Shown piece by piece: positions 1 through 10,950 of a DNA stretch of 11,068 bases. A model generated the notes under the pieces. It was not told the origin of the DNA and did not search any database. It saw nothing but the letters and a program-made list of their open reading frames with translations. The DNA comes from Alphaproteobacteria bacterium UBA3439 (GTDB lineage Bacteria > Pseudomonadota > Alphaproteobacteria > Puniceispirillales > Puniceispirillaceae), in assembly GCA_002378605.1 (NCBI GenBank), contig DFSK01000007.1:7915-18982 (forward strand), in the 5' to 3' direction. Both the position numbers and the translations under genes were made by a program. Position 1 is the stretch's first letter, and each line of letters opens with the position of its first letter.

Positions 1-956
1 CATTTAATATCAGCACGATATTGGTCATCAGGCTTTACCGGCGTGTCACAGGCAATCGTGGCCGATCCGCCCATGATGAGCTTGACCAGTTCACCACGGT
101 CAGCTGCCATGCGAACCGCTTGGCGAACACGAATGTCGGTAAAAGGAGCAACATCAGTACGGAACACCAGACCGCGCCAATTGCCGGTTGGCACTTCCAT
201 CATTTTGAATTTATTATTGCTGGCAAACATTGGCTTTTGCTGATTTGTCACCTTGTCCTCAAAGTGAATCTGTCCGCCAAGCAAGGCTTGTAAGCGTGCC
301 TGTCCATCACCAATTCCGATGATTTCCATCTTTGCAACGCCTGGCGCACCTTCCCAGTAATCCATATTGGCTTCGAGTTTGGAGGTGCCAGCAGCGTCAA
401 ATTTTACCAGCTTGAATGGGCCAGTGCCAATGCCTGATGCCGCGATGCTGTCACCCGACCCTTCTGGGATAATCCGCAAACGGTAATCCATCAGCTGAAG
501 CGGCAAATCGGCAAATGGTGTCGACAGTTTAAAGGTCACTGTTGACTTGTCCGGTGCTTCCATCTTTTCGATCATCTTGATGGCGGATCGCGCTGGCGAT
601 TTGTTTTCCGGATTCAGCACACGGTTGAATGTGTAAATGACGTCGCCGGAATCAAAAGCGCTGCCGTCGTGAAATTTAACGCCATCGCGCAATTTCAAGG
701 TCCATTCGGTAGCTTGTGAATTTGCTGACCATGAAACAGCGAGGTCTGGGCTTGGTGACCCCTTCATATCTGGTCGGATAAGGCGGCTCATCAGCTTTTC
801 CGTAATCTGCATGACACGGCCGCGTGATGCCGGATCAAGGCTGGATTTGTCGCCAAATCCATATTCATGGGCCTGTTTGAACGTGCCGCTTGGCGCGGCG
901 ATTGCGCCGCCACTAGCGAACATTATCAATGTTGCTGCAATAAGGTATTTTTTCAT
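1..956 (-). CDS. ABC transporter substrate-binding protein, family 5 (partial, 3' end outside window)
   Basis: This is a periplasmic solute-binding protein of the DppA/OppA (SBP_bac_5) family, which delivers peptides or other small solutes to an ABC importer. I translated 318 codons without a stop from ATG 956-954; the frame runs off the window, so the C-terminal part is missing (the family is usually about 500-540 residues). An AGGAGGA ribosome site lies just upstream. Residues 1-20 form a signal peptide (MKKYLIAATL... ending AIA, cleavage probably before Ala21). Family landmarks are LRDGVKFHDGSAF at about 89-101, GTGPFKL at 177-183, and DIRVRQAVRMAAD at 274-286, which is the usual FxDxRVRxAxxxAxDR region. 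Ligand specificity cannot be read from this. It is divergent from the S51 peptidase gene, so uptake of a peptide-like substrate is a reasonable inference. The permease and ATPase genes would lie to the left if the usual operon order holds. Confidence 0.9.
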   Translation of the reverse strand, partial: MKKYLIAATLIMFASGGAIAAPSGTFKQAHEYGFGDKSSLDPASRGRVMQITEKLMSRLIRPDMKGSPSPDLAVSWSANSQATEWTLKLRDGVKFHDGSAFDSGDVIYTFNRVLNPENKSPARSAIKMIEKMEAPDKSTVTFKLSTPFADLPLQLMDYRLRIIPEGSGDSIAASGIGTGPFKLVKFDAAGTSKLEANMDYWEGAPGVAKMEIIGIGDGQARLQALLGGQIHFEDKVTNQQKPMFASNNKFKMMEVPTGNWRGLVFRTDVAPFTDIRVRQAVRMAADRGELVKLIMGGSATIACDTPVKPDDQYRADIK

Positions 957-1291
957 TGCCAGTTCCTCCTCGTGATGCAGCGCCGTCATGACCGCAATGG
1001 ATCAGGGCCTGCTTTATGACTATGCAGACGGGCAGTCGACCGACAGCCTCTTGCTTTACCCAGTTATTTGCAGGCAAGTATGGATTTACCATGAATTGAT
1101 AACAAATATAATTTGCAAATAAATACATTCGGATAACGTATAGGTTTTATTTTTTAATTCGGATTGCCTATTCAGAAAAAACTGCTCAAACTAGTTTTGT
1201 TCGCGTGACTCAGTGACAGCCAAAGCGGTAGGCGCAACGCGCTGCCAAAGCTGCTGGATGACGGGAACCAAAGCCAGATTTGGGGAGTGAC
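957..1291. promoter_or_regulatory. Divergent regulatory spacer with 30-bp-period direct repeat and palindrome
   Basis: This 335-bp spacer separates the leftward binding-protein gene from the rightward peptidase gene and must hold promoters for both. Its middle (about 1090-1190) is clearly AT-rich. ATTCGGAT occurs at 1127-1134 and again at 1157-1164, exactly 30 bp apart, and each copy is followed by four bases and TA. A perfect palindrome, ATTTGCAAAT, is at 1111-1120, and GATAAC occurs at 1098-1103 and 1132-1137. I could not assign clean -35/-10 pairs. The small reading frames here have no ribosome site or family resemblance and I do not call them. Confidence 0.5.
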
Positions 1292-2038
1292 ATGAGTGGG
1301 CTGGTTCAGATATTTGCCGTTGGTGGCGGTGGGTTTACCCATGCGCAAGATGGTGCTGGCAATGATGCGCTGCTTGAAGACCGTCTGCTGGCGTTGGTTG
1401 GGCCTGTTGCCAAGCTGAAGATCGGCTATATCGGCCACGCCAATAATGATAGGGCGGATCGTCTCACGGCTTTTTATTCGCGTTTTGCGGGCTGTGCGCG
1501 GACAACGCATTTGCCGATAACGGCAGAGGCGGGGATGGCGCAGGATTTTTTGCAAGATTTGGATATTCTTTATGTCGGCGGGGGCACGACAACGGCAATG
1601 TTATCACATTGGCGCAACGCCGGCATTGCCGATTTATTGGTGGCGGCGGTGCGTCGGGGGCTTGTCGCATCCGGGGTTAGTGCCGGAGGGATTTGCTGGT
1701 TTTCCGACTTGCTGTTGAAAACCGAAGATGATTGTTTTGAACAGCATGAGGGGTTGGGACTTGTTGCGGGAAGTGCCTGTCCGCATTTCAGCAGCGAGCC
1801 AGACCGGAAACAGGCGTTTGAAACAGCGGTTGCCAGTCGACAATTGCAATCGGGAATCGCCATTGATGATGGTGTTGGCGTTCATATTATTGATGGCGTT
1901 GTTGCCGAGATCGTGTGCGCTCGCGGCGGCGGCGAATCTGCTTATTTAATAATGCCGGATGGTGAAATGAATGCCCATCAGCCGCTAGCGCGTGGACACA
2001 GGCTTGGGATGGGATTAGCAAACGGGGATAGCATATGA
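1292..2038 (+). CDS. Peptidase family S51 protein (peptidase E / cyanophycinase-like)
   Basis: This is a 248-residue cytoplasmic serine hydrolase of the S51 family. Its members include alpha-aspartyl dipeptidase PepE, which cleaves dipeptides with N-terminal Asp, and cyanophycinase. The nucleophile elbow is GVSAGGICW with Ser130. The oxyanion/strand segment ILYVGGGTT is at 92-100, and CPHFSSEPDR at 163-172 supplies the expected catalytic His165. The length fits PepE-like proteins (about 230-250). I chose ATG 1292 because GGGGAG at 1282-1287 is placed as its ribosome site; a TTG at 1280 in the same frame would put the start inside or upstream of that site. The stop overlaps the next gene's start (ATGA, 2035-2038), so the two are probably translated together. 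Divergence from a peptide-type binding protein suggests it hydrolyses an imported conjugate; the actual substrate is unknown. Confidence 0.86.
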   Translation: MSGLVQIFAVGGGGFTHAQDGAGNDALLEDRLLALVGPVAKLKIGYIGHANNDRADRLTAFYSRFAGCARTTHLPITAEAGMAQDFLQDLDILYVGGGTTTAMLSHWRNAGIADLLVAAVRRGLVASGVSAGGICWFSDLLLKTEDDCFEQHEGLGLVAGSACPHFSSEPDRKQAFETAVASRQLQSGIAIDDGVGVHIIDGVVAEIVCARGGGESAYLIMPDGEMNAHQPLARGHRLGMGLANGDSI

Positions 2039-3588
2039 GGCAAAGTGAAGGGTCGGGTCGGTCAAGAACGGGACGCATTAGACGCGACAAGAGCGCTGCT
2101 GATAGCCCTGCCGAAAGCCTTGGCGGCAAACGCATTATTGGCTTGGGGCGAGGCCATGGCCCGCTGCATGATACTGATATGGTCGCGATTCATGAGGCGG
2201 CTCTGGCAGTGCTTGCGAAAACCGGCCTTGGTGATGCCTCGCCAATTGTTGTTGATCTTGTTGTGGCCGCTGGCGGCACGTTTGATGCGCGTGGCCGGTT
2301 ATTGTTTCCACCGGATTTGGTGATGGCTGCGCTTGCCGGTTTGCGGCGGGATATCACGCTATATGGGCGCGCCGGTGTTAATGACATGGTTCTATCGTCG
2401 GGGGCGGTTCATGTTGGCACCGGTGGAGCTTCACCATTAATCTTTGATGGGGTGATGGGCAGATACCGCGAATCCAACCTTTTGGATCTTTATGATGCCG
2501 CGCGGCTTGTTGATAGGCTTGAGCATATTCATTTCCTCAGCCGACCGGTTGTCGCCCGCGATATGCCAGATGTGCGTCATCTTGATGTGAATACTGCCTT
2601 TGCCTGTCTTTCTGGTACGGTAAAGCATGTTTTCACCAGCGCCTCGTCACCCGATTCGGTAGAGGATATTGCAACCATCTGTTATCAGATTGCCGGATCC
2701 CAAACGGCGTTTCGCGACAAACCGTTTCTGTCGTTGAATGTCAATCATGTTGTGCCACCATTGCGGTTTGATCCAATTGCGCTTGACGTGATGGTCGAAG
2801 CGGTGCGCTGCGGCATTCCGGTGATGGTCAATTGTTTTGGCCAGCTTGGCGCCTCAAGTCCGGTAACGATTGCCGGCTGTGTGACGCAAACAATTGCCGA
2901 AACTCTTGCGGGAATGGTGATCGCCTGGCTGGTTGATCCGGATGCGCTTGCGGTTTTTGGCCCACGCCCGATGATTACCGATCTGCGAACCGGCGGAATG
3001 GCTGGTGGCAGTGGTGAACAGGCATTGCTGACCGCAGCCGCCATTCAGATGGCACGCTTTTACCAGCTTTCCTCATCAACAATCGCGGGCGCTACCGATA
3101 GCAAAAGTCCGGACGCGCAAAGTGGTTTTGAAAAATGTCTGAATGTCTCGCAGACGGTTCAGGCAGGGGCCAATATAATCACCCAGGCCTGCGGTGCACA
3201 GGCTGGCCTGATGGGGCTATCGCTTGCAGCACTGGTTATTGATAATGACATGTTGGGAAGCATTCTGCGCGCCAGTGGCACTGTTGCAGTATCGCCTGAA
3301 ACGATTGCTCTGGAATCGATCGATCGGGTGGCGCTTGGCGTTGGCCATTTTCTTGGTGAGCCGGAAACCTATGCACGGATGCATTCAGATTTTCTTTATC
3401 CGAAAACTGCTGATCGCCTCGGCATAGAGGCATGGGAGGAAGCGGGTAGCCCTGATATTCGCGATCGCGCGCATGAACGGGTCAAGACGATTCTTGACGA
3501 TCATCACCCGACTTACATTGACGCAGAAAGCGAAATGATATTGCGCAAGACGCTTCCCATCTTGCTGCCGCCAAGAGATCAGGCCTAA
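2035..3588 (+). CDS. MttB-superfamily (trimethylamine methyltransferase-like) protein, non-pyrrolysine
   Basis: The 517-residue product belongs to the MttB/trimethylamine:corrinoid methyltransferase family (TIM barrel). Characterised members move a methyl group from a quaternary amine such as trimethylamine, glycine betaine, proline betaine or carnitine to a corrinoid protein. Support comes from the N-terminal IHEAALAVLAKTGL (52-65), HVGTGGASP (126-134), VNCFGQLGASSPVT (265-278), GGMAGGSGEQALL (330-342) and TDSKSPDAQSGFEK (354-367), the conserved region near the Pyl site of archaeal MttB. No in-frame TAG occurs, so pyrrolysine is not used, as in the MtgB-type branch. The first 30 residues are basic and Ser/Gly-rich. 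Translation probably couples to the S51 gene through ATGA, with GGGGAT upstream. No corrinoid-binding protein or reactivase lies in the window, so the methyl acceptor and the substrate are open. Its stop overlaps the convergent LysR gene by 4 bp. Confidence 0.9.
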   Translation: MRQSEGSGRSRTGRIRRDKSAADSPAESLGGKRIIGLGRGHGPLHDTDMVAIHEAALAVLAKTGLGDASPIVVDLVVAAGGTFDARGRLLFPPDLVMAALAGLRRDITLYGRAGVNDMVLSSGAVHVGTGGASPLIFDGVMGRYRESNLLDLYDAARLVDRLEHIHFLSRPVVARDMPDVRHLDVNTAFACLSGTVKHVFTSASSPDSVEDIATICYQIAGSQTAFRDKPFLSLNVNHVVPPLRFDPIALDVMVEAVRCGIPVMVNCFGQLGASSPVTIAGCVTQTIAETLAGMVIAWLVDPDALAVFGPRPMITDLRTGGMAGGSGEQALLTAAAIQMARFYQLSSSTIAGATDSKSPDAQSGFEKCLNVSQTVQAGANIITQACGAQAGLMGLSLAALVIDNDMLGSILRASGTVAVSPETIALESIDRVALGVGHFLGEPETYARMHSDFLYPKTADRLGIEAWEEAGSPDIRDRAHERVKTILDDHHPTYIDAESEMILRKTLPILLPPRDQA

Positions 3589-4499
3589 GGCGCGGATTTG
3601 ATGATTGGGTCATTTTTGAAAGCTGTGATTATGGCATCTGCCAATTGTCTTGTTTCCTGTGTCATCATGTCAACGCCACGGGTAATGATGGCAATGTTAT
3701 ATTTCATATTCTGCACAATTGGCCGGATCACAACGCCACCTGACGCAACTGACATGCGTGCCGAAAACGGATCAACAATGGCCGGAACACCAGCCTCGCG
3801 GACCAGCGCAGCACCAGCTAGAACATTGGCAACACTATAGCGCGCATTGCTCTGGAATTTTTCGGCGAGATTGGCGTCCATGCCCTGCATTTCAAGCGGG
3901 TAGACGCTGCCAAATGTCACAAATTCTATCTGTCCGGCAACATCCTTTAAATCGATGGGGTCTTTTGACTTTGCCAGAAAATGGTCTTCAGGGATCAAGG
4001 CGACATAATTCACCATGGTCTGGTAAAGGATATCTACACCTACATAAGGCGGCGATCGCGAGACAATGCCAAGATCGAATTGCTGCAGCCGGATGGCGTC
4101 GACGATGGCAGGTGTGTTGTGCGTATAGATAATCGAATGAGTCGTGTCATCCTGCATGCGCATCTGGCCAAGAACACGCGGCAAAAGCGATGTCGAAAAT
4201 GTTGGAATGACACCGATTGAAATCTTGCCAACCGCCTTTTTGCGAATTGACGCTGCCAGATCATCGAGCCGTTCAATATTGAGAAAAGTACTTTCAACTG
4301 CCAAATGAAAGCGTCGCGCCTCGACCGTCGCGATAATGCCGCGCCCCTGACGGACAAACAGGGCAAAACCAAGATTTAATTCAAGGTCGCGAATAAGGCG
4401 CGTGACACTTGGTTGTGAGACCAGCATCTGTTTTGCAGCAGCGGTGATCGAACCGGTTTGCATAACCGCGTTAAAGGCCTTGAGTTGTCGAAAATTCAT
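3585..4499 (-). CDS. LysR-type transcriptional regulator
   Basis: This 304-residue DNA-binding regulator most likely controls the divergent 4617-9049 operon and its own gene. The N-terminal winged helix-turn-helix is textbook: MNFRQLKAFNAVMQTGSITA, then SQPSVTRLIRDLE at about 28-40, followed by LGFALFVRQGRG. The linker helix and the effector-binding domain (from about residue 85, KAVGKISIGVIPTFSTS) complete a normal-length LTTR. I chose ATG 4499-4497 because TAGGGGG lies just upstream; a TTG at 4520 in the same frame would start seven codons earlier and lacks a better site. The N-terminus resembles regulators of the NocR/OccR type, but the inducer cannot be read. The gene ends tail-to-tail with the methyltransferase gene, sharing CTAA (3585-3588), so no intrinsic terminator separates them. 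Confidence 0.95.
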   Translation of the reverse strand: MNFRQLKAFNAVMQTGSITAAAKQMLVSQPSVTRLIRDLELNLGFALFVRQGRGIIATVEARRFHLAVESTFLNIERLDDLAASIRKKAVGKISIGVIPTFSTSLLPRVLGQMRMQDDTTHSIIYTHNTPAIVDAIRLQQFDLGIVSRSPPYVGVDILYQTMVNYVALIPEDHFLAKSKDPIDLKDVAGQIEFVTFGSVYPLEMQGMDANLAEKFQSNARYSVANVLAGAALVREAGVPAIVDPFSARMSVASGGVVIRPIVQNMKYNIAIITRGVDMMTQETRQLADAIITAFKNDPIIKSAP

Positions 4500-4616
4500 C
4501 TTGCCCCCTATTTGGGTCAATCATACCTTTTTTCTATCAATTCATCCAATAATTATATTTGCCTAATGATTAAGCTGGCTGATAGCGTTTGTTGATAGTT
4601 TTGACTGGGGTAGGCA
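4500..4616. promoter_or_regulatory. Divergent LysR operator/promoter region with three TGATAG-type half-sites
   Basis: This 117-bp spacer lies between the LysR gene and the operon it faces, the standard location for an LTTR operator. CTATCAA at 4534-4540 is the exact reverse complement of TTGATAG at 4592-4598, and a third near-copy, CTGATAG, is at 4579-4585; the two rightward copies are 13 bp apart. An odd palindrome TAATgATTA is at 4564-4572. On the minus strand TATAAT (complement of 4552-4557) is a perfect -10 hexamer for the LysR gene, which would put CTATCAA just downstream of it and allow autorepression. I found no convincing -35 on either strand. GGGGTAGG before 4617 is the ribosome site of the oxidase gene. 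Confidence 0.5.
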
Positions 4617-5795
4617 TTGGGCAAACAATTATTTTCTGTCGCTGAGGCAAGGCAAGCCGCAAAACGGCGCCTGCCACGCATGATGTTTGATTTCATTGAT
4701 GGTGCGTCGGGAGATGAATCATTGCGTGATCTCAATTCAGCAATGATTGATCATATCAGATTAATGCCCCGCGTTCTGATTGATGTTTCCGAGCGCGCTA
4801 TGTCGACGTCTATTCTAGGACAGGAAACAGGCCTTCCCTTCGGCATCGCGCCAATGGGTATGTGCGCTTTGTCATGGCCAAGGGCTGATTTCAGCCTGGC
4901 GCGTGAAGCGGCGAAGCGGCGCATCCCTTTATGTGTGTCAACGGCTTCGTCGATGGCGCTTGAACAGGTGATCCAGCTGGCCGAGGGTCACGCTTGGTTT
5001 CAGCTTTATGCTGATCAGTCAAATGGGTTTGTTGATGAATTGATCGACCGCGCCATTGCTGCCGATTATAAAGTGCTGATTCTGACCGTTGATGTGCCAA
5101 TCCCGTCAGTGCGGACACGCGACAAGCGCAACGGGTTTTCCTTTCCGATGGGCTGGGGCGCGTCACAGATATGGGATTTTGTCAGCCATCCCCGATGGTC
5201 ACTTGAAACTGTGCTTCACGGTATCCGGCATCAGATGCCACAGCCGATGAACTATGCCACATCAAGCCAGGAGACAACCTTTGTGCGGAATGCCAGCAGG
5301 GCAGGCGCTGACTGGCAATTTCTCGCAGCTTTGCGTGACCGCTGGCCGGGCAAGCTGGTGGTCAAAGGGGTGCAATCGGTCGAGGACGCGTTGCGCATAA
5401 AGACAATCGGTGCGGATGCAATTTATGTGTCAAACCATGGCGGCCGCCAGCTTAATGCCGCACCGGTGGCCATTGACTCGCTTGTCGAAATCCGCAACGC
5501 GGTTGGTGGCGCTTTTCCGTTGATTTTTGATGGCGGTATCCGCAATGGCGAACATGTTGTTAAAGCGCTGGCTGTTGGGGCAGATTTTGTCATGCTGGGT
5601 CGCAGTGTGATGTATGGCCTTGGGGCCGGCGGCGCAGTCGGTCTTGGGCAAATTCTAGATTTGATTGAGGCCGAAGCCAGTTCGGTGATGGGTTTGCTTG
5701 GCTGCCGAAATATTGCCGAATTGGGCGCTACGAATTTGGCTGGCAATTATGAAGGATTGATGTTGCGAACGATGCTGGAAAGGGCTGCCGAATGA
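4617..5795 (+). CDS. FMN-dependent alpha-hydroxy-acid oxidase/dehydrogenase (LldD / glycolate oxidase / MdlB family)
   Basis: The 392-residue enzyme oxidises an L-2-hydroxyacid to a 2-oxoacid using FMN, passing electrons to O2 or the respiratory chain. Family residues seen are IAPMGM (78-82), FQLYADQ (128-134, Tyr131), LTVDVPIPSVRTRDKRNG (156-173), FMN-contacting Lys250 (VVKGVQS), catalytic His274 and substrate-binding Arg277 (SNHGGRQL), DGGIRNG (305-311) and phosphate-binding GR at 328-329. The start is TTG: an in-frame TAG at 4611 rules out anything earlier, GGGGTAGG lies just upstream, and the next ATG (codon 22) would remove conserved N-terminal sequence. The Tyr that binds substrate carboxylate in glycolate oxidase (Tyr24) aligns with Phe26 in MMFDFIDGASGDE, so the substrate preference may be shifted. 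It is first in the operon and overlaps the next gene by ATGA. Confidence 0.94.
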   Translation: MGKQLFSVAEARQAAKRRLPRMMFDFIDGASGDESLRDLNSAMIDHIRLMPRVLIDVSERAMSTSILGQETGLPFGIAPMGMCALSWPRADFSLAREAAKRRIPLCVSTASSMALEQVIQLAEGHAWFQLYADQSNGFVDELIDRAIAADYKVLILTVDVPIPSVRTRDKRNGFSFPMGWGASQIWDFVSHPRWSLETVLHGIRHQMPQPMNYATSSQETTFVRNASRAGADWQFLAALRDRWPGKLVVKGVQSVEDALRIKTIGADAIYVSNHGGRQLNAAPVAIDSLVEIRNAVGGAFPLIFDGGIRNGEHVVKALAVGADFVMLGRSVMYGLGAGGAVGLGQILDLIEAEASSVMGLLGCRNIAELGATNLAGNYEGLMLRTMLERAAE

Positions 5796-7534
5796 CGCCA
5801 ACCAAAAAGATACGGGGCGGCGCATTGCTTGCGCGTGCCTTGCAGGAAAAGGGCGTTGAACATGTGTTCACCTTGTCAGGCGGGTTTTGCAATCCTGCGC
5901 TTGAAGGGTTTATGGAATGCCAGATGAAGGTGATCAATTGTCCGCATGAACAGGTGGCAGGACATTTTGCCGATGGCCATGCGCGGATCACGCGCAAACC
6001 TGCGGTCTGTCTTGTCGGGCCGGAGGGATTTGCAAATGCTGTGCCAGCGATGATGGAAGCGTGGGGCGAACGTTCACCGGTGATTTTTGTGACCGGATCC
6101 AGCACATTGAAACGTCAAGGTGCAGGCGGCTTTAAAGAAATTGACGATGTCGCGATCGCTGCGCCGCTGACGAAATATAGCGCCACCATAACCGATGGCG
6201 AGCGCATCAATGAATTTGTTGACCGCGCTGTCAAAATTGCGACCAACGGCTATCCCGGTGCGGTGCATCTTAGCCTGCCGGTTGATATTATGTTTTCCCA
6301 TTTTGCCGAAGATGCCGGCCGCGCTGAGCGGCCGTTTGATCTGACCATGCAACTACCTGCGCGGGCATGGCCAGAACCTGCACGTCTTCAGCAGGTGCTG
6401 AAAAAGCTCAACGCTGCCAAACGGCCAGTTTTGATTGGTGGGCATGGTGTCTGGTGGGCCAAGGCCGAGACAATGCTTGAAGAGGCCGGCCGTCTGCTTG
6501 GCATTCCGGTATTTAACATCCCCTATCATCAAAAACTGCTTGGTGAAGAATGCGAAGCCTATATGGGGCTTGCCGATATTCATCAATATCACCCTTCTGC
6601 CGATGCGTTTCGTGACGCTGATCTGGTGCTGATGGTTGGTGGCCGACTTGATAATCAGATGAATTTTGGCAATCCGCCATTATTTCCGTCCAGCGCCGAA
6701 CTGGTATGTGTGAATGGATCGCATGAAGAAATAGAGTTTAACCGCGCGGCTGATTTTGCCTTGCTATGTGATCCGGCTGCGTTTCTGGAAGCATTGGTTG
6801 CGCATCAGCAGAATCCCGATTTCCGCCTGCCGCGCGATTGGTATGATTTAAACCGGCAATGGCGCGCTGACTGGGTTGAGCGGATGCTTGCTGACCTCGA
6901 TCATGAAACTGCCCAACCGGCATTTGATGGCCGGATTCATCCCTTGCAACTGGCGCTTGATGTGCAGGCCGCGATGCGCGATGGTGATTGGCTGGTGATT
7001 GATGGTGGCAATACGCATTTCTGGTCAGAAATCGCAGTGAATATTGCCGGGTTTCAGGGCAGAAAGCTTGGCGGGATTCTTCATCCGGGCACCTTCAGCC
7101 TTTTGGGTGTAGGCGTGTCGTTTGCGGTGTCGGCAAAGAATGTTGACCCTAGCCGTAATGTTGTGCTGATCAGCGGTGATGGTGCCTTTCTGTCAGGGGG
7201 ACTGTCGATTGAGGCGGCCTTTCAAGAAGACCGCCCAATCGTTGTTGTGATTGATAATAATGGCGGGCTTGACTGTATTTCCCAGCAGCAGGAAAGGCTA
7301 TTTGCCAGCGGCACCCATTATGCCACCGATTTCCGCGATATTCCGTTTCACGCGATGTTTGAGGGGCTTGGGGGGCATGGTGAATTGGTCACGCAGCGCG
7401 AGGATATTATTCCCGCGGTGCAGCGCGCCATGGCCAGCGGCAAGACGGCTTGCGTGAATGTTAAAGTGAAGGGTGTGATTAGCCCAATTGTTTTGGCGAC
7501 CACATCAAAACGCGACAAGGCGTCAATTGAGTAA
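5792..7534 (+). CDS. Thiamine diphosphate-dependent decarboxylase/lyase (acetolactate synthase / benzoylformate decarboxylase fold)
   Basis: The 580-residue cytoplasmic enzyme has the three-domain ThDP fold: an N-terminal pyrimidine-binding domain, a middle domain (about 190-350) and a C-terminal pyrophosphate-binding domain. The ThDP-activating glutamate is Glu53 in CPHEQVAGHFADGHAR. The Mg/ThDP motif is GDG at 462-464 followed by NN at 489-490, the correct GDG-X24-NN spacing. The presence of Glu53 argues against glyoxylate carboligase, which lacks it. The protein could be a 2-oxoacid decarboxylase, a carboligase or a 2-hydroxyacyl-CoA lyase/oxalyl-CoA decarboxylase relative; sequence alone does not decide. 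It starts at ATG 5792 inside the oxidase stop (ATGA), so it probably consumes the 2-oxoacid made by the oxidase, as MdlB and MdlC do in the mandelate pathway. That pairing is inference. Confidence 0.92.
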   Translation: MTPTKKIRGGALLARALQEKGVEHVFTLSGGFCNPALEGFMECQMKVINCPHEQVAGHFADGHARITRKPAVCLVGPEGFANAVPAMMEAWGERSPVIFVTGSSTLKRQGAGGFKEIDDVAIAAPLTKYSATITDGERINEFVDRAVKIATNGYPGAVHLSLPVDIMFSHFAEDAGRAERPFDLTMQLPARAWPEPARLQQVLKKLNAAKRPVLIGGHGVWWAKAETMLEEAGRLLGIPVFNIPYHQKLLGEECEAYMGLADIHQYHPSADAFRDADLVLMVGGRLDNQMNFGNPPLFPSSAELVCVNGSHEEIEFNRAADFALLCDPAAFLEALVAHQQNPDFRLPRDWYDLNRQWRADWVERMLADLDHETAQPAFDGRIHPLQLALDVQAAMRDGDWLVIDGGNTHFWSEIAVNIAGFQGRKLGGILHPGTFSLLGVGVSFAVSAKNVDPSRNVVLISGDGAFLSGGLSIEAAFQEDRPIVVVIDNNGGLDCISQQQERLFASGTHYATDFRDIPFHAMFEGLGGHGELVTQREDIIPAVQRAMASGKTACVNVKVKGVISPIVLATTSKRDKASIE

Positions 7535-7555
7535 TCTTTATCAAGGGGGAAGGTA

Positions 7556-7903
7556 GTGGCAGTTTTATCCTCTCATTTTTTGAATGCGGTTGATGGAAGC
7601 CATGCAGGTGCGGTGGCGGTTACGCTTGTGGCAATTCGCGGTAATGGCCAGCGTGAAACGCTATTTTCCGCCGAAAGTGACGAAGGTGGCCGCTTTTCCC
7701 AAAGGTTTGAGGCCACAACCGGCAAGACATATGAAATGGTGATCGCCAGCGGCGCCTATTTCAAGCAGGCGGATTTACCGCGGTCAGGGGCTCAAATTCT
7801 CGAAGAAATCGTGGTGCGCTTTACCACGCCTGATCCGGATTGCAGCTATCATATTCCCGTCATTATGGCGCCTAACAGCTATTCATGCTGGTGGTCGGCT
7901 TGA
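7556..7903 (+). CDS. 5-hydroxyisourate hydrolase / transthyretin-like protein with altered C-terminus
   Basis: The 115-residue product is a member of the HIUase (PucM/HiuH)/transthyretin-related family. HIUase hydrolyses 5-hydroxyisourate to OHCU in urate degradation and forms a tetramer with active sites at the dimer interface. The N-terminal LSSHFLNAVDG places the catalytic His at 7, GGRF gives Arg46, TYEMVIASGAYF (58-69) is the family core, and DPDCSYHIPVIMAPNSYS (93-110) supplies His99. The diagnostic C-terminal YRGS of true HIUases is replaced by CWWSA, so this may act on another ring or not be an HIUase. No uricase or OHCU decarboxylase is present here. The start is GTG 7556, preceded by AAGGGGGAAGG; there is no upstream in-frame alternative with a site. 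It sits 21 bp after the ThDP gene, so it is in the same operon. Confidence 0.85.
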   Translation: MAVLSSHFLNAVDGSHAGAVAVTLVAIRGNGQRETLFSAESDEGGRFSQRFEATTGKTYEMVIASGAYFKQADLPRSGAQILEEIVVRFTTPDPDCSYHIPVIMAPNSYSCWWSA

Positions 7904-7933
7904 TCGACATAATAATTTAGTGAGGCGTAACTG

Positions 7934-9049
7934 ATGAGTGAATCGGGGCTAAACATGTCGCGCCGTATCCGGCGGACTCCTTATACTGACAAGGTTGAAC
8001 AGCATGGCGTTCGCGGTTTCAGCGTGGTCAATCATATGCTGTTGCCAAAGGCATATGCGGCATCGGTTGAAGAGGCTTACTGGCATCTTCGTGACCATGT
8101 TCAAATATGGGATGTGGCCTGTCAGCGGCAAGTTGAAATTTCCGGGCGTGACGCGGCGCATCTGGTTCAGCTAATGACGCCGCGTGATCTTCGCCGGGCG
8201 TGTGTTGGGCAGGGGCTTTATGTACCGCTAATCGACGAGCATGCTGGCATGTTGAATGATCCGGTCTTGTTGAAACTGGCCGACGACCATTTCTGGCTGT
8301 CGATTGCGGATTCGGATGTTCTGCTATGGGCAAAGGGGCTGGCGGTTGGCATGGGCCTTGACGTGGTTATCGACGAAGCCGATGTCGCGCCACTTGCCGT
8401 TCAGGGGCCAAAGGCAGGCGCGCTAATGGCAAGCCTCTTTGGTAATCAGATTGAAAATTTGCCCTATTTCGGCTTTGCAATTTTTGATGTTCTTGGCACG
8501 CGTCAATTGATTGCACGTTCGGGTTACAGCAAGCAGGGTGGCTTTGAAATATATCTTCAAGGCAGCCATTTGGGAACCGATCTCTGGGATCTGATTTGGG
8601 ATGCTGGCCAGCCCTATAATATAGCGCCAGGTTGCCCAAATTTAATCGAGCGTATTGAAGGCGGGCTGATGTCATATGGCAATGAATTTACCCGCGCCAA
8701 CAACCCGCTGGAATGTGGTTTTGACCGTTTGTGCCATCTTGGTGACGAAATCGATTATATTGGCGCTTCGGCGCTTCGGCAGATTGCTGCTGACGGGCCG
8801 GTTCAATCGATCCGTGGGATCCGCTTTGGCGGTGATAAGGCGCCACCCTGCGGCAAGCCATTTCCGGTGACCGATCTGAATGATGAGGTGGTTGGGCAGA
8901 TCACTTCGGCAATCTATTCGCCGCGTTTGAACTGCAATATCGGCATGTCGATGATCCGTAAAACCCATTGGGATTATGGCAGCAGCCTGCTGGTTCATAC
9001 GCCTGATGGCATGGTGCGTGATGCAATGGTTTCCGAATTGCCTTTTTAG
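7934..9049 (+). CDS. dmdA: DmdA-type tetrahydrofolate-dependent demethylase (GcvT superfamily)
   Basis: The 371-residue protein belongs to the DMSP demethylase (DmdA) branch of the GcvT aminomethyltransferase superfamily. DmdA transfers a methyl group from dimethylsulfoniopropionate to tetrahydrofolate, giving methylmercaptopropionate and 5-methyl-THF. The resemblance is strong from the start: RRTPYTDKVEQHGVRGFS (13-30), NHMLLP (33-38), HLRDHVQIWDVACQRQVEIS (51-70), TPRDL (82-86), GMLNDP (105-110), LAVQGPKA (144-151), APGCPNLIERIEGGL (231-245). The length matches DmdA (about 365-370). In RSGYSKQGGFE (195-205) the fourth residue is Tyr198, where I recall Trp in characterised DmdA; if correct, the onium pocket differs and the substrate may not be DMSP. 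GAGG at 7922-7925 supports ATG 7934; ATG 7955 (seven codons in) is a possible alternative. It is last in the operon, 30 bp after the transthyretin-like gene. Alternative: a DmdA-like paralogue for another sulfonium or betaine. Confidence 0.75.
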   Translation: MSESGLNMSRRIRRTPYTDKVEQHGVRGFSVVNHMLLPKAYAASVEEAYWHLRDHVQIWDVACQRQVEISGRDAAHLVQLMTPRDLRRACVGQGLYVPLIDEHAGMLNDPVLLKLADDHFWLSIADSDVLLWAKGLAVGMGLDVVIDEADVAPLAVQGPKAGALMASLFGNQIENLPYFGFAIFDVLGTRQLIARSGYSKQGGFEIYLQGSHLGTDLWDLIWDAGQPYNIAPGCPNLIERIEGGLMSYGNEFTRANNPLECGFDRLCHLGDEIDYIGASALRQIAADGPVQSIRGIRFGGDKAPPCGKPFPVTDLNDEVVGQITSAIYSPRLNCNIGMSMIRKTHWDYGSSLLVHTPDGMVRDAMVSELPF

Positions 9050-9756
9050 GGATCGGCATGATCAACCGCGGCGTCTTGCGCGAACAGCGGTTCTTGGGTG
9101 CGCAATTGAAAATGGGCGTTTAGTAATCTTCGTGATTTGATAATTAATGGGTCGCTGACGCCGTCATGCTTGGCAAAGATGGCGGTAATAACGCTGGTGC
9201 CTTATTCGGTTGCGTCATGGACGGTGACGAAAGCCAAGATTGACGCGCTTGCATCGATCTAGCTGGCAAAGCCCTTTTGTGTTGCGATAAAAGCCAAGCT
9301 GCAATTTATCATGTCCGTCTAGATTGCCAGCTGACCTTGATCATTTAAGCTGGTTTAGACGTAAATGGTAATCATGAGGCTTTGCGTAAATCCTGCCCCA
9401 CATCCAATTCATATGTGACCATAGCTAACGAACCGTCTCAAATTTGCCACGGCTTTTTGCGTTTGGTGGCTTTTGATTGCGCCGCCCATCGCGCCATTTT
9501 TGGAAGTATCGGCGACAGTTTTGGCGATTGTTGCAGGCTGTCGCATTTGCAATCCTGTTACAAAAGGCTCACAATCTTTCGATCAGGGCATCGTCTTGAT
9601 AGGCTTTTCTGTATCAATAATATAATACTGTCGGCCTGCATGGCTCATGGTATGTCTTGAAATGGCCTTTGATCATTAGATGGGCATATTTCGTCAGGGT
9701 TGAGTTTATGTTTTTCACACATCCTATCGTTTCAAGACAATAAAGGTCTGATCACA
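9050..9756. other. Gene-poor stretch of about 700 bp, possibly a decayed gene
   Basis: No intact gene can be supported here, in contrast to the tight packing on both sides. An AGGGA site overlapping the dmdA stop is followed by ATG 9058 and only 21 codons to a TAG at 9121. On the plus strand a frame with protein-like stretches (around 9165-9255 and 9455-9615) is broken by many stops. On the minus strand 9412-9582 is open for 57 codons, with a stop at each end. Both pictures fit a remnant of a lost gene, but I recognise no family. Other structure: AAAGCCAAG at 9230-9238 and 9290-9298; inverted repeat AGCTGGCAA 9261-9269 / TTGCCAGCT 9324-9332. No convincing rho-independent terminator was seen after dmdA. 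Confidence 0.4.
9653..9739. repeat. 10-bp perfect inverted repeat in the MFS gene leader
   Basis: TGTCTTGAAA at 9653-9662 is the exact reverse complement of TTTCAAGACA at 9730-9739, with 67 bases between the arms. The right arm ends 17 bp before the transporter start codon, next to its ribosome site. It could be a pair of operator half-sites or a chance repeat; arms this far apart are unlikely to act as a simple hairpin. Confidence 0.45.
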
Positions 9757-10950
9757 ATGAAATGGCTTTTTCTGGCACTTGGCTCAATGTTTGTTCAGCA
9801 AACCTTTGTCACCTTGGGTAAGGTTTTGCCTTCGGTGCTTGCCCCTGCGATCATTTCCGAGCTTCACATCGAGGCGTCTTGGCTTGGTGTTTATGTTGGC
9901 ATGATCGCCGCGGTTTCCCTTTTGGTGCAGGCGGGTTGTGGAAGCATTATTGTGCGGTATGGCGCGCTTCGTGTGAGTCAAATTTCACTTTTACTAACCG
10001 GCGTTGGATTGATTTTAGCGGCGCCAGGAATCATTGCCTTGATGGTTTTATCGGCAATCGCCATTGGCGCGTCGGCGTCTTCGACCCCGGCAAGCTCGCA
10101 TCTTCTAAGCCGGTATGCACCTGGTAAATATGCGCCGCTGGTTTTTTCGGCAAAGCAAACAGCGGTGCCGGTTGCTTTGTTGATTGCCGGATTGCTTGGG
10201 CCGCTATTGACTGAGATTTACGGCTGGCGTCACGCGCTTGTGGTGATTGGAATCGGTTGTTTGCTTTTTCCTTTGATGCTGGAATTCATGCGGCGTGAAT
10301 TTGATAGCGATAAAGATGTAACGCGACAATTCCACTTGTCAGATTTTCGCGAAACGATCGGCTTTGTGATTGGCAAACCCGAACTTAGAGGCCTCGCATT
10401 TGGCTCTTTTGCCTTTGTAGGGTTGCAAACGACCTTCATTGCTTATTTTGTTATTTACCTGACCGAAATTGGTTTCAGCCTGATTGTGGCTGGGACGATA
10501 TTTTCGATTGCGACCGCCGTTGCAATACCGGGCCGGATTTTTTGGGGGTGGTTGAGCAGCCGTTATATTTCGCCTCGGGCGATGCTTGGCTTTTTGGCGA
10601 TTTTGATGTTTTTTGCTGTTTCCTGCGTCGCTTTGTTCAGCCCGATCTGGACTGATTGGCAAGTTACGCTTGTGGCAATTGCCGTCAGCGCTTCGGTTTT
10701 CTCATGGCATGGGGTAACGCTTGCCGAAGCCGCAAGGCTTGCCCCAACCTCGATGCGGGGCGCGGTTACTGGCGGGGTTTTATCCTTTGGGCAATGTGGT
10801 GGCCTTGTCTTGCCATTGATCTATTCATTGGTGTTGGGTGTAACCGAAAGCTATAAGCTTGGCTTCTTTATTTGTGCTTTACCGGCGCTTTTGATTGGTT
10901 TGATGTTGCTTTATTCGGCACGACATCAGATGACAGTAATCCGCAATTAG
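9757..10950 (+). CDS. Major facilitator superfamily transporter
   Basis: The 397-residue protein is an inner-membrane secondary carrier with about 12 hydrophobic segments in two six-helix halves, joined by a charged cytoplasmic loop at about 178-200 (RREFDSDKDVTRQF). Motif A-type loops are visible at 61-72 (CGSIIVRYGALRV region) and 258-274 (PGRIFWGWLSSRYISPR). FSAKQTAVPVA at 130-140 is a segment common in small-organic-anion and cyanate-type MFS carriers. I chose ATG 9757 because AAAGGT at 9742-9747 is well placed and the protein then begins at the first helix; a TTG at 9700 would add 19 polar, poorly conserved-looking residues. The substrate is unknown. It is separated from dmdA by about 700 bp, so it probably has its own promoter, but uptake or export of a compound used by the operon to its left is a fair guess. 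Confidence 0.92.
   Translation: MKWLFLALGSMFVQQTFVTLGKVLPSVLAPAIISELHIEASWLGVYVGMIAAVSLLVQAGCGSIIVRYGALRVSQISLLLTGVGLILAAPGIIALMVLSAIAIGASASSTPASSHLLSRYAPGKYAPLVFSAKQTAVPVALLIAGLLGPLLTEIYGWRHALVVIGIGCLLFPLMLEFMRREFDSDKDVTRQFHLSDFRETIGFVIGKPELRGLAFGSFAFVGLQTTFIAYFVIYLTEIGFSLIVAGTIFSIATAVAIPGRIFWGWLSSRYISPRAMLGFLAILMFFAVSCVALFSPIWTDWQVTLVAIAVSASVFSWHGVTLAEAARLAPTSMRGAVTGGVLSFGQCGGLVLPLIYSLVLGVTESYKLGFFICALPALLIGLMLLYSARHQMTVIRN

What the first reader, a model, noticed from the sequence alone, without database searches (positions are those of the whole stretch)
4500..9049. LysR-controlled operon joining a 2-hydroxyacid oxidase, a ThDP lyase, a transthyretin-like protein and a DmdA-type demethylase
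Seen: four co-directional genes with 4-bp overlap, 21-bp and 30-bp gaps, headed by a divergent LysR gene. Family knowledge: FMN oxidase gives a 2-oxoacid; ThDP enzymes of this fold decarboxylate or ligate 2-oxoacids; DmdA moves a methyl group from an onium compound to THF; HIUases open a ring. I know of no described pathway with this set. One coherent guess is catabolism of a methylated 2-hydroxyacid. For example, 4-dimethylsulfonio-2-hydroxybutyrate (an intermediate of DMSP synthesis) could be oxidised and decarboxylated toward DMSP, then demethylated. The missing aldehyde dehydrogenase and the role of the transthyretin-like protein are weak points.
Basis: partly seen in the sequence, partly recalled or inferred. 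Interest (0 to 1): 0.72.

Follow-up and report, generated by a model that had tools for sequence, protein, structure and literature searches.

The report
Conserved marine operon with DmdA look-alike
Several groups of ocean bacteria share a four-gene operon that probably breaks down an unknown methylated hydroxy acid, and two of its genes look like well-known enzymes but carry changed active sites, so databases may be naming them wrongly.

Summary
A LysR-flanked quartet (FMN 2-hydroxyacid oxidase, ThDP enzyme, transthyretin-like protein, DmdA-like methyltransferase) lies at 4617-9049 with the stated spacings. It is a conserved unit: 69 of 70 named-genome loci with room on both sides hold all four in this order, across SAR116, SAR11-titled, other alphaproteobacterial and one gammaproteobacterial record.

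Two members are diverged paralogues. The DmdA-like protein passes NCBI's DMSP-demethylase model, yet forms its own clade and has Tyr at the reported DMSP-binding Trp (92 of 92; Trp in 13 of 13 canonical). Of 12 quartet genomes of SAR11 type or of a small-genome order, 11 also carry canonical DmdA. The transthyretin-like protein keeps two catalytic His but has Trp for the essential Tyr (92 of 92); 14 ordinary YRGS copies were read elsewhere in 13 quartet genomes.

The ThDP and transthyretin-like genes are the invariant pair. They also occur without the other two, beside a GlcD-like dehydrogenase (L206) or an SDR (L212). Best reading: demethylation to THF and 2-hydroxyacid oxidation feed a fixed ThDP/TTR step. 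The substrate is unknown. DMSHB-to-DMSP-then-DmdA is not supported as ordered.

The parts
3..989 (-). family-5 ABC solute-binding protein (SBP_bac_5), cut off by the window; three further ORFs of conserved clusters follow outside the window in L026, taken as permeases and ATPase by position and not scanned
   Evidence: nearest solved chain of its homologue in L033 is AgaA 6hlx
1292..2038 (+). peptidase S51 family protein (GxSAG motif), probable start ATG 1292
   Evidence: near 19 of the 20 quartet loci L026-L045 and in 38 of 80 named loci
2035..3588 (+). MttB-superfamily methyltransferase, no in-frame amber codon; optional partner, 4-base overlap with the S51 gene
   Evidence: PF06253 351 bits, TIGR02369 315 of 525 bits; between S51 and the oxidase in 11 of 20 loci
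3585..4499 (-). LysR-type regulator, divergent from the operon
4500..4616 (.). LysR-oxidase intergenic region with a block conserved in five close relatives, candidate operator and promoter
4617..5795 (+). FMN-dependent 2-hydroxyacid oxidase/dehydrogenase; Lys250, His274, Arg277 kept, Phe26 where plant glycolate oxidase has Tyr24 (that numbering recalled)
5792..7534 (+). ThDP-dependent enzyme (decarboxylase/lyase type), catalytic Glu53 and GDG motif; most conserved member
7556..7903 (+). transthyretin/HIUase-fold protein ending YSCWWSA where HIUases end YSTYRGS
7934..9049 (+). DmdA-like THF methyltransferase paralogue with Tyr at the reported DMSP Trp position

Best explanation
The quartet is a catabolic operon for an imported, methylated 2-hydroxy acid that is not DMSP, most likely a sulfonium compound. 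Proposed flow: an ABC (family 5) or TRAP transporter imports it; the DmdA paralogue moves one methyl group to tetrahydrofolate; the FMN oxidase turns the demethylated L-2-hydroxy acid into a 2-oxo acid; the ThDP enzyme cleaves or decarboxylates that 2-oxo acid; the transthyretin-like protein works with the ThDP enzyme as a hydrolase on the substrate or product of that step. The methyl group goes through the THF C1 pathway. In some lineages a second methyl group may be handled by MttB (corrinoid-dependent), a GcvT-like protein or a homocysteine S-methyltransferase relative. Shown: conservation, the separate clades, the active-site changes, and ThDP/TTR pairs without the other two genes. Inferred: the reactions, their order and the substrate class.
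For: 69 of 70 loci hold all four genes in order. Cluster DmdA is one clade (17 rows, 99/97) apart from canonical DmdA (13 rows, 100/100), with Tyr at P. ubique position 197 in 92 of 92 and Trp in 13 of 13 canonical, P. ubique included; the paper calls that Trp (its W171) key for DMSP (PMC7487153, passages). Presumed folate Glu204 is kept in 92 of 92 and Tyr206 in 87 of 92. L084 has PurU and a weakly MTHFR-like protein (30 bits against a 294 cut-off, no Pfam match) after DmdA, in the same clusters as L085, L088 and L096; L105 and L084 have homocysteine S-methyltransferase relatives below the NCBIfam cut-offs. A GlcD-like dehydrogenase follows the second Pelagibius ThDP/TTR pair, an SDR follows L212's, and GlcD/E/F-like genes lie convergent near L220's, beyond a Fic gene: different dehydrogenase families, one ThDP enzyme (L206's 73% identical to the window's; L212's 71% to L042's), so the ThDP step is probably the shared one, after oxidation. 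Sulfur hints: distant MtoX relatives (156-158 bits against a 650 cut-off) near two ThDP/TTR units; enoyl-CoA hydratases downstream in the G220-order type.
Against: No substrate evidence. Family-5 transporters, peptidase S51 and the transthyretin-like protein are not explained by a simple sulfonium hydroxy acid. MttB, GcvT-like and homocysteine S-methyltransferase-like neighbours fit a quaternary ammonium substrate as well. PMC7487153 also finds the Trp in clades it calls non-DmdA, so that residue alone does not fix the substrate; one of 16 non-cluster copies has Tyr too. No dedicated aldehyde dehydrogenase lies in the operon; one (BetB-like, below cut-off) lies downstream on the other strand in L105, beside a choline-dehydrogenase-like gene, and may belong to choline use. 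The MtoX relatives are far below the cut-off. In L218 the ThDP/TTR pair has no recognised catabolic gene among the five neighbouring ORFs scanned.
Confidence: 0.5

Rival explanations
1. One reading: DMSHB is oxidised and decarboxylated towards DMSP, which the operon's own DmdA then demethylates.
For: The families fit nominally; NCBIfam scores 581 bits against a 410 cut-off for DMSP demethylase.
Against: Canonical DmdA is separately present in 11 of 12 quartet genomes of SAR11 type or of the G220 order. Trp to Tyr at the reported DMSP residue in 92 of 92. ThDP/TTR pairs without DmdA beside them. No role for the transthyretin-like protein. No aldehyde dehydrogenase in the operon.
Confidence: 0.08
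2. The substrate is a quaternary ammonium 2-hydroxy acid (betaine type), demethylated stepwise by MttB, GcvT-like or homocysteine S-methyltransferase-like enzymes and the DmdA paralogue.
For: MttB in 11 of 20 loci and beside the Pelagibius and L080 quartets; a B12-binding domain in short open frames (234-267 residues) elsewhere in 7 of 9 SAR116-order genomes tested; GcvT-like copies with Phe at the key position upstream in SAR11-titled and G220-order loci. Aerobic marine MttB-type demethylation of glycine betaine is published (PMC12478193, passages).
Against: MttB is optional, and neither MttB nor the B12-binding domain was found in the 7 SAR11-type and G220-order genomes tested, three of them without stated completeness. 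Methyl transfer from a quaternary amine to THF by a DmdA fold is not known to me.
Confidence: 0.2
3. Methylated ureide or purine breakdown: the transthyretin-like protein opens a ureide ring as HIUase does.
For: HIUase fold (TMq 0.88 to 4q14); both catalytic His and Arg46 kept in 92 of 92.
Against: 15 of 18 quartet genomes have a second copy above 100 bits; of 15 other copies read, 14 end in YRGS and the fifteenth is in the second Pelagibius ThDP/TTR pair. OHCU decarboxylase passes its cut-off in 16 of 18, often within 2 kb of the second copy by the coordinates. The cluster copy has Trp at the Tyr whose Phe mutant lost rapid HIU hydrolysis (PMC4324301, passages).
Confidence: 0.1
4. The ThDP/TTR pair has its own general housekeeping or detoxifying function, and the oxidase and DmdA paralogue merely travel with it.
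For: Pairs with asparaginase and SDR, or among other neighbours.
Against: Near-invariant four-gene order over distant lineages.
Confidence: 0.12

Closest known systems
DmdA, DMSP demethylase (P. ubique 3tfh)
   Same: family and length, 48% identity, passes the NCBIfam equivalog cut-off, folate-site Glu/Tyr kept
   Different: separate clade, DMSP Trp replaced by Tyr, 16 near-fixed differences from canonical copies, different operon, co-occurs with canonical DmdA
5-hydroxyisourate hydrolase (PucM/HpxH type)
   Same: fold, H7, R46, H99
   Different: no YRGS; invariant Trp at the catalytic Tyr; below the TIGR02962 cut-off; linked to a ThDP enzyme rather than purine genes
(S)-mandelate pathway MdlB-MdlC (recalled)
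   Same: FMN 2-hydroxyacid dehydrogenase next to a ThDP 2-oxoacid decarboxylase
   Different: transthyretin-like and THF-methyltransferase partners; sequences far from characterised members
Sulfolactate pathway with TTT transporter, FAD dehydrogenase and ThDP decarboxylase (recalled)
   Same: works like the L206 operon in outline
   Different: other ThDP family; sulfonate substrate not shown here
THF-dependent LigM/DesA demethylase operons with MetF (recalled)
   Same: GcvT-fold demethylase plus an MTHFR-type protein, compare the weakly MTHFR-like protein of L084
   Different: aryl methoxy substrates

Membership tests
DmdA (DMSP demethylase) | NCBIfam NF009133 equivalog cut-off 410 bits | tested here: met
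   581.1 bits; 6 of 6 further cluster copies scanned 519-580
DmdA (DMSP demethylase) | key DMSP-interacting Trp (W171 of PMC7487153, taken by spacing as P. ubique W197) | tested here: not met
   Tyr in 92 of 92 cluster copies, Trp in 13 of 13 canonical
DmdA (DMSP demethylase) | falls inside the clade of the characterised enzyme | tested here: not met
   own clade 99/97; canonical 100/100
DmdA (DMSP demethylase) | DMSP:THF methyl transfer activity | not testable with these tools
   needs an assay
5-hydroxyisourate hydrolase | two catalytic His (H6, H95 of a bacterial enzyme, PMC4324301) | tested here: met
   H7 and H99 in 92 of 92; position match from the 2gpz coordinates
5-hydroxyisourate hydrolase | essential Tyr (Y108) within YRGS | tested here: not met
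   Trp112 in 92 of 92; YRGS in 0 of 86
5-hydroxyisourate hydrolase | TIGR02962 cut-off 87.45 bits | tested here: not met
   58.2 bits
FMN 2-hydroxyacid oxidases | PF01070 and catalytic Lys, His, Arg | tested here: met
   403 bits; K250, H274, R277 in 88 of 88; the further Arg168 is Lys in 19 of 88
FMN 2-hydroxyacid oxidases | Tyr24 of glycolate oxidase (recalled) | tested here: not met
   Phe in 85 of 88, Tyr in 1, gap in 2
L-lactate dehydrogenase LldD | NCBIfam cut-offs (PRK11197 376, LldD 550) | tested here: not met
   287.6 and 248.9 bits
ThDP decarboxylase/lyase superfamily | three TPP domains, catalytic Glu, GDG...N motif | tested here: met
   Glu in 95 of 95 and GDG, N in 110 of 110 rows with letters
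acetolactate synthase or another named ThDP equivalog | any NCBIfam cut-off among the 25 of 51 matching families shown | tested here: not met
   best 270.9 of 587
MttB, pyrrolysine-type | TIGR02369 cut-off and in-frame amber | tested here: not met
   315 of 525 bits; open frame without amber

The most novel reading that the evidence does not exclude
A second, undescribed sulfonium-catabolic route of abundant ocean bacteria: a DmdA paralogue demethylates DMSHB-type sulfonium hydroxy acids (DMSHB to MTHB), the oxidase makes 4-methylthio-2-oxobutyrate, and a new ThDP plus transthyretin-like pair cleaves it. DMSP precursors would then be bacterial food, and dmdA surveys could have counted this gene as DMSP demethylase.
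Probability: 0.15. Interest if true: 0.85.

Novelty: new variant of a known kind. Interest (0 to 1): 0.62.

Why it matters
dmdA is used as the marker of DMSP demethylation in SAR11 and SAR116. A paralogue that recurs in these groups, passes NCBI's DmdA equivalog model at the same scores as canonical DmdA (519-581 bits for seven cluster copies, 523 and 584 for two canonical ones) and lacks the reported DMSP Trp could inflate such counts. Two SAR116 surveys report different dmdA distributions (PMC12262181 and PMC8547437, passages); whether this gene is the cause was not tested. The quartet also points to an unknown methylated substrate available to common plankton, and to a ThDP/transthyretin-like enzyme pair for which my searches listed no description.

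Tried and rejected
Purine or ureide role: rejected as the main reading, because ordinary YRGS copies lie elsewhere in the same genomes. MttB as a core part: rejected, it is optional and was not found in the SAR11-type and G220-order genomes tested. MFS gene 9700-10950 as a part: rejected, single to this genome among the loci clustered. Plasmid search with the ThDP protein: no match at E 1e-100. ThDP structure model: mean pLDDT 64.8, not used. MtoX link: weak, 156-158 bits against a 650 cut-off. Homarine literature and DMSHB catabolism: nothing matching in the listings. Operon literature: searches listed no paper that I could see describing this gene set; judged from titles and abstract starts, and of the papers only the passages cited here were read. 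PMC3528726 was searched for HIUase residues without result.

Rows dropped: one search kept DmdA hits spanning 900 bases or more without stops and merged identical rows (163 kept plus the 3tfh sequence); one search dropped hits with low coverage or stops; the tree used 52 of those 164 rows, 17 of 92 cluster copies; one search fetched the best 80 of 505 loci; searches list 120 of 3,474 and 3,485 proteins.
Full report
What is there. The window lies in a genome of 1.84 Mb in 183 contigs, 81% complete (G000:C73). The closest named loci are titled Puniceispirillum or SAR116. Pfam and NCBIfam confirm the families. Upstream, on the + strand, lie an S51 peptidase and an MttB-type methyltransferase, and a family-5 solute-binding protein lies on the - strand. 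The MFS gene downstream has no relative in the loci clustered.

Conservation. A search of 61 genomes (own and related) found DmdA-family genes in 60. The twenty loci returned for the closest type, the window's own included, all carry oxidase, ThDP and transthyretin-like genes beside DmdA. Sixteen loci that I picked of more distant DmdA-family copies (L046-L061) carry none of the three. A scan of named genomes with the ThDP alignment found 505 relatives (at a loose tblastn limit) and kept 80: 24 titled Pelagibacteraceae or Pelagibacterales, 13 SAR116 or Puniceispirillum, and the rest mostly uncultured Alphaproteobacteria, with Hyphomicrobiales, a Pelagibius and a gammaproteobacterial bin (my count of the titles). 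In these the quartet is complete in 69 of 70 loci with room on both sides; the exception, L082, lacks a recognised oxidase. The unit is nevertheless thin across species: 3 of 289 and 5 of 385 genomes in two overlapping draws from the class, 2 of 398 in one draw from the phylum (the window's own genome counted in the first and third), but 66 of 162 in the order of G220, a group of small genomes that I recall as HIMB59-like without having tested it. These counts rest on the ThDP gene alone.

The DmdA paralogue. It is about 48% identical to the P. ubique enzyme and passes NCBI's equivalog model, as do the six further cluster copies scanned; so does one of the two non-cluster, non-canonical copies scanned. 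A 52-row tree puts cluster copies and canonical copies in two separate, well supported clades; six further copies at 42-50% identity to P. ubique sit beside the canonical ones. The Trp that PMC7487153 calls key for DMSP (passages) corresponds by the spacing of its W171, E178 and Y180 to P. ubique W197, E204 and Y206; this mapping is mine. It is Tyr in 92 of 92 cluster copies, Trp in 13 of 13 canonical copies, Phe in 43 of 43 GcvT-like copies near the SAR11-titled and G220-order quartets, and Trp in 15 of 16 other copies, the sixteenth having Tyr. Fifteen further positions differ in a near-fixed way (at least 99% of canonical and 95% of cluster rows). The same paper finds the Trp in some clades it calls non-DmdA, so the residue is a pointer, not proof. 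Eleven of twelve quartet genomes of SAR11 type or of the G220 order also carry a canonical copy of at least 65% identity; the twelfth is 55% complete. In the six SAR116-order genomes tested, Pelagibius and L084's genome no match above 50% identity was found. PMC3160333 (passages) lists four such proteins in P. ubique HTCC1062, including an unassigned one beside metF; I did not test whether any is of this type.

The transthyretin-like protein. Sequence and a confident model (pLDDT 92.6) place it in the HIUase fold. PMC4324301 (passages) reports that H6A, H95A and Y108F of a bacterial HIUase lost rapid hydrolysis. By the alignment coordinates of 2gpz these match H7, H99 and W112 of the window protein: both His and Arg46 are kept in 92 of 92, and the Tyr is Trp in 92 of 92. 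All 18 quartet genomes tested have a cluster-type copy, and 15 have a second copy above 100 bits. Of 15 other copies read from 13 genomes, 14 end in YRGS; the fifteenth belongs to the second Pelagibius ThDP/TTR pair. OHCU decarboxylase passes its cut-off in 16 of 18. So this is a paralogue with a remodelled site, not the purine enzyme.

The core pair. A second Pelagibius operon reads TctC-like, a 166-residue protein, a 505-residue permease-like protein, then ThDP, TTR, GlcD-like and TauD-like (both below NCBIfam cut-offs), with no FMN oxidase or DmdA (the Tct reading of the first three rests on partial matches and recall). L212 and L217 have asparaginase next to ThDP-TTR, with an aconitase further up; L212 also has an SDR after it. 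In L220, cut at the contig start, ThDP-TTR is followed by a Fic gene and then, on the other strand, by genes with the domains of GlcF, GlcE and a GlcD relative at 26% identity (the Glc naming of the first two is mine from their domains); in L218 no catabolic gene was recognised in the five ORFs scanned. L211 and L219 have the full quartet again. The ThDP protein stays 73-76% identical to the window's in the seven other contexts aligned, whereas TTR falls to about 40% and the oxidase to about 50% in distant members. I infer that the ThDP step is the fixed one and that the oxidase, GlcD-like or SDR proteins feed it.

Methyl handling. L084 adds a weakly MTHFR-like protein (30 bits against 294, no Pfam match) and PurU (above its cut-off) after DmdA, and a homocysteine S-methyltransferase relative (124 of 215 bits) nearby; the first two recur as clusters in L085, L088 and L096. 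The G220-order type has such a relative and a GcvT-like gene upstream. MttB lies in 11 of the 20 closest loci, and 7 of 9 SAR116-order genomes tested have a B12-binding domain in a short open frame, while the SAR11-type and G220-order genomes tested (7) show neither. An aerobic MttB-type demethylase for glycine betaine is published (PMC12478193, passages). This supports methyl groups as the common theme without fixing sulfur or nitrogen.

Substrate. Sulfur is favoured by the DmdA family, whose known substrate is a sulfonium, by distant MtoX relatives near two ThDP-TTR units and by enoyl-CoA hydratases downstream in the G220-order type. It is not shown. The peptide- or opine-type transporter, with AgaA as nearest solved chain, the S51 protein and the transthyretin-like hydrolase are unexplained by DMSHB. 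DMSHB occurs in several algae (PMC5395565, passages), so it is a reasonable first compound to test.

Regulation. A block in the LysR-oxidase gap is nearly unchanged in five close relatives while its flanks vary, consistent with a LysR site; these relatives are close, so this is suggestive only.

Verdict. Novelty lies in the combination and in the two apparently repurposed paralogues.

Noticed in passing
G000:C5:32296-33150 and L046-L061: SAR116-order genomes hold further DmdA-family paralogues (35-50% to P. ubique DmdA); of the 15 of these loci read, 14 have Trp at position 197 and one has Tyr; they lie in other contexts.
   Followed up: partly
L086:6140-7363, L105:7549-8778: A GcvT-like protein with Phe at position 197 (43 of 43 such copies) sits upstream of the quartet in SAR11-titled and G220-order loci; the L086 copy's best NCBIfam matches are the DMSP and TMAO demethylase models, below cut-off.
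   Followed up: partly
L206:7388-19694: Pelagibius ThDP-TTR operon with GlcD-like and TauD-like genes, facing an acyl-CoA dehydrogenase, enoyl-CoA hydratase and a distant MtoX relative; phosphonate ABC transporter and PsrA genes lie just beyond.
   Followed up: partly
L212:8434-14351, L217: ThDP-TTR next to asparaginase, with an aconitase-family gene upstream, conserved in two genomes of one genus.
   Followed up: partly
L220:864-6244: TTR end of a ThDP-TTR pair, a Fic gene, then convergent genes with GlcF-, GlcE- and GlcD-type domains (glycolate-oxidase-like).
   Followed up: no
L128:16523-19146: MttB overlaps a PanE/ApbA-type reductase gene in Pelagibius near the quartet.
   Followed up: no
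window 9700-10950: MFS transporter downstream of the quartet, not shared by the relatives clustered.
   Followed up: no
genomes G020, G037, G508: Seven, nine and fourteen MttB-family matches in single genomes; the window copy has no in-frame amber.
   Followed up: no
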